Part shown: piece after piece, positions 16,282 through 26,772 of the stretch
How positions within the stretch are numbered: the stretch's first letter is position 1
How the letters are laid out: every line of letters starts with the position of its first letter
The notes under the pieces: generated by a model
The model's database searches: none
The model's input: the letters and a program-made list of their open reading frames with translations, nothing else
Told to the model about the DNA's origin: nothing
Translations under genes and position numbers: made by a program
Source: Halogeometricum sp. S3BR5-2
GTDB lineage: Archaea > Halobacteriota > Halobacteria > Halobacteriales > Haloferacaceae
Reading direction: 5' to 3'
Assembly: GCF_031624635.1 (NCBI RefSeq)
Contig: NZ_JAMQOQ010000006.1
Span: 62,001 to 126,000, forward strand
DNA: 64,000 bases

Positions 16282-16393
16282 GAGTGAGTCCTGATAGGGT
16301 AGTGGACTATCCTCCTGGCTTGCGGAGCCAGGGACCGGAGTTCAAATCTCCGTCAGGACGCTTCTCTGCAGCGCAACCCGACGAGCGTAGCGA
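16282..16393. repeat. Direct repeat with tRNA-Arg, copy 1
   Basis: A 112-nt unit made of GAGTGA, the complete tRNA-Arg and its first 33 bases of 3' flank. It recurs at 18161-18272, exactly 1879 nt downstream, with a single mismatch (G at 16371 versus C at 18250). Sequence identity stops abruptly at both ends. Confidence 0.95.
16288..16360 (+). tRNA. tRNA-Arg (GCG), copy 1
   Basis: A 73-nt cloverleaf with acceptor GTCCTGA paired to TCAGGAC, anticodon stem CTGGC/GCCAG with loop TTGCGGA giving GCG, T-arm GGAGTTCAAATCTCC and discriminator G. It reads the CGC arginine codon common in this genome. An identical gene lies at 18167-18239. Its 3' flank carries several palindromes built partly from its own T-arm. 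Confidence 0.95.
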
Positions 16394-16412
16394 GTCGGCC
16401 GCGCTACAGGAA
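16362..16412. repeat. tRNA-tail palindrome after tRNA-Arg copy 1
   Basis: A hairpin beginning right after the tRNA. Its perfect inner part (16378-16398) has 5-bp arms CCGAC/GTCGG, a tandem GA/GA step, GC/GC and a GTA triloop. Outward, GCGC/GCGC, CTGCA/TACAG (one mismatch) and TTC/GAA extend it with internal loops. The cap is GC-GTA-GC, a GNA triloop. Confidence 0.75.
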
Positions 16413-16422
16413 CGGACGCAGC

Positions 16423-16472
16423 GGAGATTTGAGCAGCGAGCGAACGAAGTGAGCGAGTGAGTTCAAATCTCC
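16423..16472. repeat. Palindrome flanked by inverted and direct tRNA-Arg T-arm pieces
   Basis: The 10-bp outer stem is GGAGATTTGA (16423-16432) and TCAAATCTCC (16463-16472); the right arm is the T-arm sequence of tRNA-Arg and the left arm its inverse. Inside, 16438-16456 reads GA-GC-GA-AC-GAA-GT-GA-GC-GA: two-base pairs alternating with GA/GA steps around a GAA triloop. Confidence 0.85.
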
Positions 16473-16495
16473 GTTGGGCCATCGGCCCGACGTGC

Positions 16496-16536
16496 CTCAC
16501 ACTCGCTTCGCTCGTGTGAGACTCCGTCAGGACGCT
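16496..16536 (-). repeat. Hairpin plus tRNA-Arg 3'-end fragment
   Basis: On the minus strand, 16496-16520 has 7-bp arms CTCACAC/GTGTGAG, a GA/GA step, GC/GC and a GAA loop. On the plus strand it is followed at 16522-16536 by CTCCGTCAGGACGCT, the last bases of the tRNA-Arg copy 1 and its first flank bases. Confidence 0.85.
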
Positions 16537-18160: not shown

Positions 18161-18272
18161 GAGTGAGTCCTGATAGGGTAGTGGACTATCCTCCTGGCTT
18201 GCGGAGCCAGGGACCGGAGTTCAAATCTCCGTCAGGACGCTTCTCTGCACCGCAACCCGACGAGCGTAGCGA
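18161..18272. repeat. Direct repeat with tRNA-Arg, copy 2
   Basis: The second copy of the 112-nt unit described at 16282-16393. Downstream the hairpin's outer right arm is lost (CCGG instead of GTCGG), and at 18285-18299 the arms CTCACAC/GTGTGAG seen near copy 1 recur with only one base between them, as if the GA-GC-GAA-GC-GA cap had been deleted. Confidence 0.93.
18167..18239 (+). tRNA. tRNA-Arg (GCG), copy 2
   Basis: Identical in all 73 bases to the gene at 16288-16360, including the encoded discriminator G. The upstream sequence differs from copy 1 beyond GAGTGA, so the promoter is not shared; AT-rich DNA (cgtaaccgtcttaag) lies just upstream. Confidence 0.95.
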
Positions 18273-18352: not shown

Positions 18353-18574
18353 CTACTCCCGGTCGTACCGCGACGGCGCGTCGTCCTCGTCGACGATGCG
18401 TCGGACCGAGGAGACGACGCGCGAGCGCATCGGGCGCGGTTTCGGCCGCCCGCGACCGGACCGCCGGTTCGACCACGCCTCGTGGCAGTCGCCGCAGTAG
18501 TTGCCCTTGTACGTGCCCGTGAACAGGTACGGGTCGCCGCACCCGATGCAAGTGGAGGTGGCGAGTCGTTTCAT
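18353..18574 (-). CDS. Small zinc-finger protein
   Basis: A 73-residue protein with two CxxC knuckles, C9-x2-C12 (CIGC) and C27-x2-C30 (CGDC), spaced to form one zinc ribbon, followed by a basic, arginine-rich tail and an acidic end (RRIVDEDDAPSRYDRE). Small two-CxxC proteins of this kind are common in haloarchaea and mostly uncharacterised; some affect motility and biofilm formation. The start at 18574 is chosen because the zinc ribbon begins there; the longer frame upstream is out of character. Read divergently from the DUF309 gene. Confidence 0.8.
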   Translation of the reverse strand: MKRLATSTCIGCGDPYLFTGTYKGNYCGDCHEAWSNRRSGRGRPKPRPMRSRVVSSVRRIVDEDDAPSRYDRE

Positions 18575-18721
18575 CCAACGTCCTCCGCGGGAGTCGAGAG
18601 TTGGAGTCTGTTCATATGCTATCAAGCCACATATGTTCCGGGAGTAGATAAGCTTGTCACCGAGAACGAACGAGCAGGCGGTCGCGTGAGGTATTTGGGT
18701 TCGGAAGGCCCTCGAAAACGC

Positions 18722-19342
18722 ATGGAACGAGCGCTCCGCGTCGGCGCGGCGGTGTTCAACGAGGGGGACCACCACGCCGCCCACGACGCGTGGGAAGAGG
18801 AGTGGCTTCCGCTCGAAGCGGGGACCGCCGACGAGCGACTGCTGCACGGACTCATCCAGTACACCGCCGCGGTGTACCACGCGCGGAACCGCAACTGGAG
18901 CGGCGCGCGGGGACTGGCCGAGAGCGCCGGCGAGTACCTCGGCGGAGTGGCGCCCGACTACCGCGAGGTGAACGTCGGGGCGGTTCGAGCGTACCTCGGC
19001 CGCCTCGCCGCCGACCCGGAGTTCGCCGAGCGAGCGTCGCCCGTCCCGCTGACCGTCGGCGGCGTCGCCGTGCGCGCCGAGGACCTCTCGTTCGAGGGCG
19101 TCGCCGAGGCGGCGCGACTCCTCGCGGCGGACGGAGAGCGGTGGGACGAGGGCGTGGTCGAAGACGCCGCGCGCTACGGGCGCGAAGAGGTCGAAGCGGA
19201 CGCCTCCACGACGCGGTTCGTCGCCCTGCTGTTCGAGTTCGTCGGCGGCGGGGAACGGCGCGGCCTCGTCTACCAGCGGTTGCGAGAGCACACGGAACGG
19301 CGGCGCGGGCGGGAAGAAGACGTGTCCGGGCTGTTCGAGTGA
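18722..19342 (+). CDS. DUF309 domain protein
   Basis: A 206-residue helical protein with the DUF309 hallmark: FNEGDHHAAHDAWEEEW near residues 13-29, then LLHGLIQYTAAVYHARNRNW. The conserved His/Glu residues suggest metal binding, but no function is established. The 80 extra C-terminal residues beyond the core are acidic and helical. It overlaps nothing and is convergent with azf 4 nt away, leaving almost no terminator space. Confidence 0.85.
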   Translation: MERALRVGAAVFNEGDHHAAHDAWEEEWLPLEAGTADERLLHGLIQYTAAVYHARNRNWSGARGLAESAGEYLGGVAPDYREVNVGAVRAYLGRLAADPEFAERASPVPLTVGGVAVRAEDLSFEGVAEAARLLAADGERWDEGVVEDAARYGREEVEADASTTRFVALLFEFVGGGERRGLVYQRLREHTERRRGREEDVSGLFE

Positions 19343-25493: not shown

Positions 25494-25566
25494 GGGCTCG
25501 TGGTCTAGTGGTTATGACGCTTCCCTTACAAGGAAGAGATCGGTGGTTCGACTCCGCCCGAGCCCA
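25494..25566 (+). tRNA. tRNA-Val (UAC)
   Basis: A 73-nt cloverleaf: acceptor GGGCTCG paired to CGAGCCC, anticodon stem CTTCC/GGAAG with loop CTTACAA giving UAC, T-arm GGTTCGACTCC and discriminator A. Its 3' part recurs twice downstream (25676-25696 and 25796-25814). A 57-nt palindrome begins within its last acceptor bases. Confidence 0.95.
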
Positions 25567-25620
25567 TTTCTGACGACACGCAGCGACGAGCGAAGCGAGT
25601 CGTCCGTGGAGTCGAAATGG
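25564..25620. repeat. tRNA-tail palindrome of tRNA-Val
   Basis: A 57-nt hairpin whose outer stem CCATTTC/GAAATGG begins in the last acceptor bases of tRNA-Val. Going inward: GAC/GTC, a GA/GA step, CACG/CGTG, a small internal loop, CGAC/GTCG (25584-25587 and 25599-25602), another GA/GA step, GC/GC and a GAA triloop. Confidence 0.85.
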
Positions 25621-25627
25621 GCGACGT

Positions 25628-25696
25628 GGAGTCGAACTCGGGAGTGGAGCGAACGAAGTGAGCGGAACGAGGATAGTTCGACTCCGCCCGAGCCCA
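25628..25696. repeat. Palindrome with inverted T-arm and second copy of the tRNA-Val 3' end
   Basis: An 11-bp outer stem, GGAGTCGAACT (25628-25638) with AGTTCGACTCC (25675-25685), is built from the inverted and direct T-arm of tRNA-Val. Between them 25649-25663 reads GC-GA-AC-GAA-GT-GA-GC. The right arm continues to 25696 as the last 21 bases of the tRNA, discriminator included. Confidence 0.85.
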
Positions 25697-25748: not shown

Positions 25749-25814
25749 GAGTCGAATCAGGGAACGAAGTGAGCGAAGCGAACGGAGCGACCGAGGTTCG
25801 ACTCCGCCCGAGCC
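25749..25814. repeat. Third copy of the tRNA-Val 3' end with hairpin
   Basis: An inverted T-arm remnant GAGTCGAA (25749-25756), hairpin GT-GA-GC-GAA-GC-GA-AC (25769-25783), and then 19 bases of the tRNA-Val 3' end (25796-25814). This is a more degraded version of the element before it. Confidence 0.8.
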
Positions 25815-26482: not shown

Positions 26483-26556
26483 GCCGCCTTAGCTCAGACT
26501 GGGAGAGCACTCGACTGAAGATCGAGCTGTCCCCGGTTCAAATCCGGGAGGCGGCA
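26483..26556 (+). tRNA. tRNA-Phe (GAA)
   Basis: A 74-nt cloverleaf with acceptor GCCGCCT paired to AGGCGGC, anticodon stem CTCGA/TCGAG with loop CTGAAGA giving GAA, T-arm CGGTTCAAATCCG and discriminator A. A TTTT run follows at once. Its T-arm and 3' end are partly copied twice within the next 220 nt. Confidence 0.95.
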
Positions 26557-26611
26557 TTTTCCTGCGAACTACCGAGGGAGCGGAGCGACCGAGTCGTGAG
26601 CAGTGAAAATG
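26555..26611. repeat. tRNA-tail palindrome of tRNA-Phe
   Basis: A 57-nt hairpin starting in the last acceptor base of tRNA-Phe: CATTTTC/GAAAATG, then CTGC/GCAG, GA/GA, AC/GT, a small internal loop, and the core at 26574-26592 reading GA-GG-GA-GC-GGA-GC-GA-CC-GA. The triloop is GGA and the GG/CC step is a compensated variant of the GC/GC or AC/GT steps in other copies. Confidence 0.85.
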
Positions 26612-26620
26612 TTCCCCGAG

Positions 26621-26673
26621 CGGATTCTGAACCAGCGAGCGACTGAAAGGAGCGAGTGAGGTTCAAATCCGGG
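26621..26673. repeat. Palindrome with inverted and direct tRNA-Phe T-arm
   Basis: Left arm CGGATTCTGAACC (26621-26633) is an inverted T-arm with one extra base; the right arm GGTTCAAATCCGGG (26660-26673) is the direct T-arm. Between them 26637-26655 reads GA-GC-GA-CT-GAA-AG-GA-GC-GA, where CT/AG replaces the AC/GT of the tRNA-Arg copy. Confidence 0.85.
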
Positions 26674-26715
26674 GCGACATCACGATTCTACGCGATCTGC
26701 ACTTGAGAGCTGGCC

Positions 26716-26772
26716 GAGCTGTCCCCGTCGCCGCGAACGCAGTGAACGAGCGAGATACGAATCCGGGAGGCG
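26716..26772. repeat. tRNA-Phe 3'-half fragment interrupted by a hairpin
   Basis: GAGCTGTCCCCG (26716-26727) and AATCCGGGAGGCG (26760-26772) are the two sides of the tRNA-Phe T-loop region. In place of the loop bases lies a 32-nt insert with GC-GA-AC-GCA-GT-GA-AC (26733-26747), a GCA-capped member of the hairpin family with one C/A mismatch. Confidence 0.8.

What the first reader, a model, noticed from the sequence alone, without database searches (positions are those of the whole stretch)
16423..16472. Inverted and direct pieces of the tRNA-Arg T-arm form the outer stem of a second hairpin
GGAGATTTGA ... TCAAATCTCC is the T-arm of tRNA-Arg in inverted then direct orientation, enclosing GA-GC-GA-AC-GAA-GT-GA-GC-GA. 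A simple integration scar would leave only a direct 3'-end copy, not the inverse joined to a structured hairpin. This suggests copying by template switching at a hairpin, or an element that carries tRNA ends as its own arms.
Basis: partly seen in the sequence, partly recalled or inferred. Interest (0 to 1): 0.7.

Follow-up and report, generated by a model that had tools for sequence, protein, structure and literature searches.

The report
Zigzag copies of tRNA gene tails
[quoted passage not shown] coli tRNA gene has the same layout.

Summary
CGGAGATTTGA (16422-16432) and TTCAAATCTCC (16462-16472) are inverted and direct copies of the T-arm of the tRNA-Arg(GCG) at 16288-16361. They flank a cap that can pair through tandem G·A mismatches and a GNA loop. 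It is not a one-off. About 40% of tRNA genes in two genomes of this genus, and 30% in another family, carry tail copies downstream and almost never upstream. The unit is a zigzag: direct tail, trailer, cap, inverted tail, cap, direct tail. Arms co-vary between species while caps stay constant. Relatives of the same genus differ by whole units (134, 136, 139, 237 bp). The window holds a natural comparison: both tRNA-Arg genes share 31 of 32 trailer nucleotides up to the cap; one then turns back into the inverted copy, the other runs into unique sequence. A true integrase insertion in this genome looks different. E. coli tyrT/tyrV (RtT) repeats and Peregrinibacteria tRNAs share the layout. Best explanation: hairpin-directed template switching, then unit gain and loss by recombination between direct copies. 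Mechanism about 45% likely; anatomy about 90%. Function was not shown.

The parts
16288..16361 (+). tRNA-Arg(GCG), copy A: the first direct copy (D) of the tail
16362..16393 (+). trailer of tRNA-Arg A ending in cap A GAGCGTAGCGA (16383-16393); identical at 31 of 32 positions to the trailer of tRNA-Arg B
16394..16432 (+). inverse copy (I) of trailer + tRNA tail: GTCGGCCGCGCTACAGGAA...CGGAGATTTGA; inverse T-arm at 16422-16432
16433..16461 (+). cap B GCAGCGAGCGAACGAAGTGAGCGAGTGAG (minimal cap 16442-16452)
16459..16474 (+). second direct copy of the tRNA tail, T-loop plus 3' T-stem
16473..16491 (.). hairpin GTTGGGCC-ATC-GGCCCGAC in the place of hairpin C1 of relatives, where the arms are acceptor-derived GTCAGG/CCTGAC
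16496..16520 (-). hairpin C2, CTCACAC-GA-GC-GAA-GC-GA-GTGTGAG read on the minus strand
16522..16535 (+). third direct copy, CTCCGTCAGGACGC (3' T-stem plus acceptor to nt 73)
18167..18240 (+). tRNA-Arg(GCG), copy B, without any unit
18241..18272 (+). trailer of tRNA-Arg B, stopping at the cap GAGCGTAGCGA (18262-18272) and then running into unique sequence orthologous to relative G004
25494..25566 (+). tRNA-Val(TAC)
25588..25598 (+). cap A behind tRNA-Val
25599..25637 (+). inverse copy of trailer + tail of tRNA-Val (GAAATGGGC..GGAGTCGAAC)
25651..25661 (+). minimal cap B behind tRNA-Val
25676..25696 (+). direct copy of the tRNA-Val tail, 21 nt
25795..25814 (+). second direct copy of the tRNA-Val tail, 20 nt
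26483..26556 (+). tRNA-Phe(GAA)
26578..26651 (+). cap A (26578-26588), degenerate inverse copy (to about 26631), cap B (26641-26651) behind tRNA-Phe
26660..26673 (+). direct copy of the tRNA-Phe T-arm
26715..26772 (+). a further tRNA-Phe fragment: anticodon/variable piece 26715-26727, cap 26735-26745, T-stem/acceptor piece 26760-26772

Best explanation
The sequence is one unit of a zigzag array, direct - inverse - direct (D-I-D), of the tRNA gene's own tail: T-loop, T-stem, acceptor strand, trailer. The most likely origin is DNA-level template switching. When DNA synthesis passes the trailer, the GA/GNA cap folds back on the new strand and primes copying of that same strand, which makes the inverse copy. 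At the T-loop a second cap lets it turn again, which makes the next direct copy, and synthesis goes on into the original flank. Later template switching between the arms keeps them complementary. Unequal homologous recombination between the direct tail copies duplicates, deletes and shuffles whole units. The arrays probably have no coding role. Shown: anatomy, arm covariation, whole-unit gain and loss, break point at the cap. Inferred: self-priming by the cap, and the enzymes. Not known: whether cells gain anything from it.
For: (1) Paralogs in the window: trailers of tRNA-Arg A and B match at 31 of 32 nt up to the end of the cap; A then turns into its own inverse, B continues into unique flank. 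(2) In 24 tRNA-Arg modules the stretch after cap A matches the reverse complement of D at the T-loop (85%), T-stem (97%) and trailer nt 1-15 (about 79%), against 41-60% for shuffled controls; the acceptor part (57%) is at control level on average, but locus L022 keeps most of it. (3) The inverse arm follows the tRNA, whichever isoacceptor it is, which a carried element end would not do. (4) Own arms pair better than arms swapped between species, 0 of 2000 permutations, for hairpins A and B. (5) Copies start at the T-loop edges (nt 52-54 or 60/61), and 57 of 81 end at nt 73. (6) Whole-unit differences between G000 and G004 at Ser(CGA), Ser(TGA), Met(CAT) and Arg(GCG)B, and five tandem units in L096, two of them identical. 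(7) In 22 of 88 arrays the first 24 nt behind the tRNA match those behind the last copy at 75% or more, against 4-8% in controls.
Against: No event was caught in the act: the closest pair compared is at genus level. Cap B is not derivable from the tRNA, so a plain template switch does not explain where it comes from. Conservation of the caps across distant lineages suggests selection or propagation rather than a pure mutational by-product. Units with caps on the opposite strand (C) need switching on the other strand.
Confidence: 0.45

Rival explanations
1. Small non-autonomous hairpin elements, like the haloarchaeal PATE/SMR elements or bacterial REPs, moved as single-stranded DNA by a transposase acting in trans; they land at tRNA ends and their arms come to match the tRNA.
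For: The cap with unrelated arms also lies far from tRNAs, in haloarchaea and in many bacteria as dispersed palindromes. Haloquadratum has about 110-bp SMR-A elements with inverted ends that insert into palindromes by an unknown mechanism (PMC3119063). Caps, not arms, are conserved.
Against: The inverse and direct arms are specific to each host tRNA, and one break point lies inside the trailer. Four orthologous comparisons show differences of exactly one or more units with no unrelated flank.
Confidence: 0.25
2. Scars of tyrosine-recombinase integration: repeated att sites of elements that used the tRNA 3' end, with the T-loop as overlap region.
For: Copies begin at the two edges of the 7-nt T-loop, like cuts around a 7-bp overlap; tRNA genes are the usual archaeal att sites and some att sites are as short as the acceptor end (PMC8371274). 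Phage-integrase family genes do lie directly behind tRNA-Leu(TAG) in G000 and tRNA-Met in G004.
Against: The true insertion at tRNA-Leu(TAG) in G000 is about 10 kb, carries an integrase gene, and its far copy includes anticodon-arm sequence; the zigzag unit lies beyond it as a separate thing and is present without the element in G004. Array units are 50-250 bp, gene-free, and carry an inverse copy that integration does not make.
Confidence: 0.12
3. A functional RNA or RNA-processing signal in the tRNA trailer, kept by selection, as annotated for E. coli RtT RNA.
For: Arms covary; E. coli RtT repeats are annotated as an RNA, rttR.
Against: Stem mismatches show no excess of G·T over A·C on the tRNA strand (12 against 27 over hairpins A, B, C1, C2), unlike an RNA helix. 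C modules have their G·A caps on the opposite strand. More than half of tRNA genes have no array, and unit number varies freely within a genus.
Confidence: 0.13
4. Slowly drifting old flank or chance similarity.
For: Weak inverse matches at single tRNAs are within chance (Phe).
Against: Downstream direct copies of 12 nt or more: 20/49, 20/46 and 14/46 tRNAs, against 2, 2 and 0 upstream; whole-unit gain and loss.
Confidence: 0.02

Closest known systems
E. coli tyrT/tyrV repeats (RtT RNA, Rfam RF00391; rttR/tpr)
   Same: Tandem units (178 bp apart) behind a tRNA gene, each ending in the tRNA's last 19 nt; each also holds an inverse copy of the T-stem (GGGGAAGGAT) and GA/GNA-type hairpins, and the tyrT-tyrV spacer holds the cap GAGCGAAGCGA.
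   Different: One tRNA family in one bacterial group; direct copies run to the encoded CCA; the Rfam model does not match the haloarchaeal genomes searched.
PATE and SMR-A elements of Haloquadratum walsbyi (PMC3119063)
   Same: Short, gene-free, palindromic haloarchaeal repeats; mobilisation of SMR-A unexplained.
   Different: Dispersed families with fixed ends; not described as built from tRNA tails.
REP palindromes (GTAG/CGTC-tagged, RAYT-associated; PMC3733652)
   Same: Short extragenic palindromes with a conserved part.
   Different: There the ends carry a family tag; here the arms follow the neighbouring tRNA and the caps are conserved.
Quasi-palindrome correction and template switching between inverted repeats (PMC8604942, PMC3820800)
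   Same: A mechanism that makes or homogenises complementary arms next to a hairpin.
   Different: Described as mutations in yeast; not as ordered tRNA-tail arrays.
GCGAAGC-type mini-hairpins (GNA triloop; PMC4686876)
   Same: The cap's tip GCGNAGC is this very stable DNA hairpin.
   Different: Known from oligonucleotides and aptamers; the natural copies here add tandem G·A steps.

Membership tests
RtT (RF00391) | Direct copy of the tRNA tail at the end of each unit behind a tRNA gene | tested here: met
   compared
RtT (RF00391) | Inverse T-stem copy plus GA-rich hairpins between the direct copies | tested here: met
   E. coli; haloarchaea
RtT (RF00391) | Match to the Rfam covariance model | tested here: not met
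   no match in G000, G004, G107; only a weak one (24.1 bits, E 0.0125, below the cut-off of 45) in Peregrinibacteria G173 behind tRNA-Tyr
Tyrosine-integrase att scar | Element between the copies with an integrase gene, or at least genes | tested here: not met
   array units are 50-250 bp and too short for genes; a true case looks different
Tyrosine-integrase att scar | Copies bounded by a 7-bp overlap region | tested here: inconclusive
   copy starts cluster at both edges of the T-loop, but recombination was not tested
REP / PATE / SMR | Family-conserved element ends independent of the insertion site | tested here: not met
   arms follow the host tRNA
REP / PATE / SMR | Association with RAYT or IS605 transposase | not tested
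   no search for such genes was made
Structured RNA | Covarying helices | tested here: met
Structured RNA | G·U tolerated on the transcribed strand more than A·C | tested here: not met
   12 G·T against 27 A·C, small numbers
Structured RNA | A transcript of the array | not testable with these tools
   no expression data at hand

The most novel reading that the evidence does not exclude
The caps are self-priming hairpins that define a class of gene-free, self-copying DNA elements found in both Archaea and Bacteria. They grow by folding back and copying whatever lies next to them, most visibly tRNA tails, and E. coli RtT is the one member already named.
Probability: 0.25. Interest if true: 0.85.

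Novelty: new variant of a known kind. Interest (0 to 1): 0.63.

Why it matters
A single E. coli curiosity, the tyrT repeats, becomes one case of a layout that recurs behind roughly a third or more of tRNA genes in the haloarchaeal genomes examined and in a candidate-phylum bacterium. It offers many natural replicates for asking how inverted repeats are born and kept, with species pairs that differ by one unit. It also warns that short tRNA-tail repeats are not always integration scars: in this genome both kinds stand at the same tRNA gene.

Tried and rejected
A scan of viral contigs with GGAGATTTGAGCAG returned only chance hits: none of the 120 stretches had the direct copy nearby. A cap scan of viral contigs gave 11 stretches that were not followed up. 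A tRNA-only origin of the cap was rejected because caps also sit in other palindromes. An insertion with a CTCCGT target duplication around 16469-16527 was considered from the window alone; relatives show that this stretch is module C with replaced C1 arms, so it was dropped. Literature searches found no paper on haloarchaeal tRNA-tail arrays; most subscription papers are not in that library, so prior description cannot be excluded. The original papers on E. coli rtT were not found there either; those repeats were checked in the sequence instead.

Full report
Observation. The window is haloarchaeal: 68% G+C, tRNA-Arg flanks resemble those of named haloarchaea, and 59 of 60 relatives match it in this region. 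The tRNA-Arg(GCG) gene ends at 16361. GGAGATTTGA at 16423-16432 is the reverse complement of its T-loop and 3' T-stem, and TCAAATCTCC at 16463-16472 is the direct copy. Neither match length recurs in 500 shuffles of the flank. The enclosed sequence reads GA-GC-GA-AC-GAA-GT-GA-GC-GA. With tandem sheared G·A pairs and a GNA triloop it is a symmetric hairpin; with Watson-Crick pairs alone it is mostly open. Two facts support the G·A reading. Genome-wide hits of the cap pattern have complementary free 2-nt steps in 59 of 71 cases (tally, expectation 1 in 16). Hairpin tips in the tRNA-Arg arrays are mostly GNA, on the plus strand in A and B and on the minus strand in C.

The same layout recurs in the window. 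Behind tRNA-Val and tRNA-Phe the order is the same: cap about 22 nt after the tRNA, inverse T-arm about 60 nt, second cap about 85 nt, direct tail copy about 105 nt. In the window 11 of 15 hits of the generalised cap lie within 450 nt downstream of these tRNAs or the two tRNA-Arg genes; shuffles give 3.9 per 64 kb.

Genome scale. In G000 (this genome), G004 (same genus) and G107 (another family), 20 of 49, 20 of 46 and 14 of 46 tRNAs have a direct copy of at least 12 nt downstream, against 2, 2 and 0 upstream. Inverse copies of at least 9 nt number 12, 15 and 14 downstream against 1, 6 and 1 upstream. Of 81 direct copies, 57 end exactly at nt 73, and starts cluster at nt 52-54 or 60/61, the two edges of the T-loop.

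Unit structure. In 48 tRNA-Arg(GCG) flanks the modules AB (hairpins A and B) and C occur in many orders: AB-C, AB, C, C-AB-C, AB-AB-C, or none. Locus L096 has five tandem AB units of 150-160 bp, units 2 and 3 being identical. The stretch between caps A and B is an inverse copy not of the T-arm alone but of trailer, discriminator, acceptor and T-arm. The acceptor part is on average at control level; L022 keeps most of it, and in the window tRNA-Val keeps GAAATGGGC and GGAGTCGAAC in order. So a unit is direct - inverse - direct.

Arms covary. Pairing own arms against arms swapped between species gives 0 of 2000 permutations as good, for hairpin A and for the inner part of hairpin B. In stems, single G·T mismatches (12) do not exceed A·C (27), and module C carries its G·A caps on the minus strand. 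This points to DNA rather than to an RNA of the tRNA strand; the counts are small.

Gain and loss. Orthologous flanks of G000 and G004 align again after a shift of 136 nt at Ser(CGA), 134 at Ser(TGA), 237 at Arg(GCG)B and 139 at Met(CAT). These equal one unit or, for Arg, AB plus C. The two tRNA-Arg genes of the window give the break point: 31 of 32 trailer nucleotides agree through the cap GAGCGTAGCGA, then copy A turns into the inverse and copy B runs on. The first and last trailers of an array agree at 75% or more in 22 of 88 arrays, against 4-8% in controls, as expected if the last direct copy carries the original flank.

Not an integration scar. G000 carries a true insertion at tRNA-Leu(TAG): a phage-integrase family protein directly behind the tRNA, and about 10 kb further on a tail copy that includes anticodon-arm sequence. 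Beyond that lies the zigzag unit, which in G004 sits directly behind the tRNA. The two phenomena are distinct and stand side by side.

Beyond haloarchaea. A cap pattern scan of 84,980 genomes hit 71 stretches. Of the 27 haloarchaeal ones, 15 lie within 400 nt behind a tRNA, of eight amino-acid types; the bacterial ones are mostly dispersed palindromes with other arms. Three bacterial hits also lie near tRNAs, and one of them, Peregrinibacteria tRNA-Lys, has the full layout CAGGCGGGATGAGAAG...cap...AGTCCCGCCTGACCCACCA. In that genome 9 of 31 tRNAs have direct copies downstream and 1 upstream; a few of the nine are long repeats of tandem tRNAs or tRNA fragments. tRNA-Tyr of this genome and tRNA-Ser of a related one repeat the layout with the same GATGAGAAG. 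E. coli tyrT/tyrV shows it as well: inverse GGGGAAGGAT at +60, +238 and +416, direct AATCCTTCCCCCACCACCA at +160, +338 and +516, and GATGAGAAG at each inverse copy. These are the Rfam RtT units. The RtT model does not match the haloarchaea and matches only weakly (below cut-off) in Peregrinibacteria, at the tRNA-Tyr unit. So haloarchaeal arrays share the layout of RtT but are not members of that family by sequence.

Mechanism. The zigzag with one break at the trailer cap and one at the T-loop, arms specific to each tRNA, and a final direct copy that continues into the original flank are the product expected from two successive template switches. Arm homogenisation by template switching between inverted repeats is known (PMC8604942). 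GCGAAGC-type mini-hairpins are known to be very stable (PMC4686876). That the cap primes the switch is inference. Recombination between the direct copies then explains duplicated and lost units. The main gap is the origin of cap B, which is not tRNA sequence; this leaves room for a propagating cap element, the second-ranked explanation.

Standing of the claims. Anatomy, recurrence, covariation and unit gain and loss: tool results. Template switching, self-priming, DNA-level action: inference with the stated support. That tandem G·A pairs in a CGAG context are stable is general knowledge, not tested here. Function: not shown. No description of haloarchaeal tRNA-tail arrays turned up in the open library, which lacks most subscription papers.

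Noticed in passing
G000:C1:80782-91849 (L081, L466): About 10-kb integrated element at tRNA-Leu(TAG) with a phage-integrase family gene; its far end keeps anticodon-arm and T-arm sequence, followed by the zigzag unit.
   Followed up: partly
G004, flank of tRNA-Met(CAT): A second phage-integrase family gene directly behind a tRNA.
   Followed up: partly
window 26715-26727: A 13-nt piece of the tRNA-Phe anticodon arm and variable loop (CGAGCTGTCCCCG) in its own flank, a rare copy from upstream of the T-arm.
   Followed up: no
L345, L352, L363, L384, L404, L413: The cap also tips bacterial palindromes of the type ATCCTGAGCGAGCGA..GAGCGAGTCGAAGGAT in Acidobacteriota, Planctomycetota and others.
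   Followed up: partly
window 18542-19342 and L019, L027, L095: A DUF309 protein gene lies downstream of tRNA-Arg(GCG) in the window; similar sequence stands at that place in several relatives.
   Followed up: no
G161 (L244, L249, L251, L253): Four cap hairpins not near tRNAs in one genome, all preceded by a similar GTAAGCAC-containing stretch; perhaps another repeat family.
   Followed up: no
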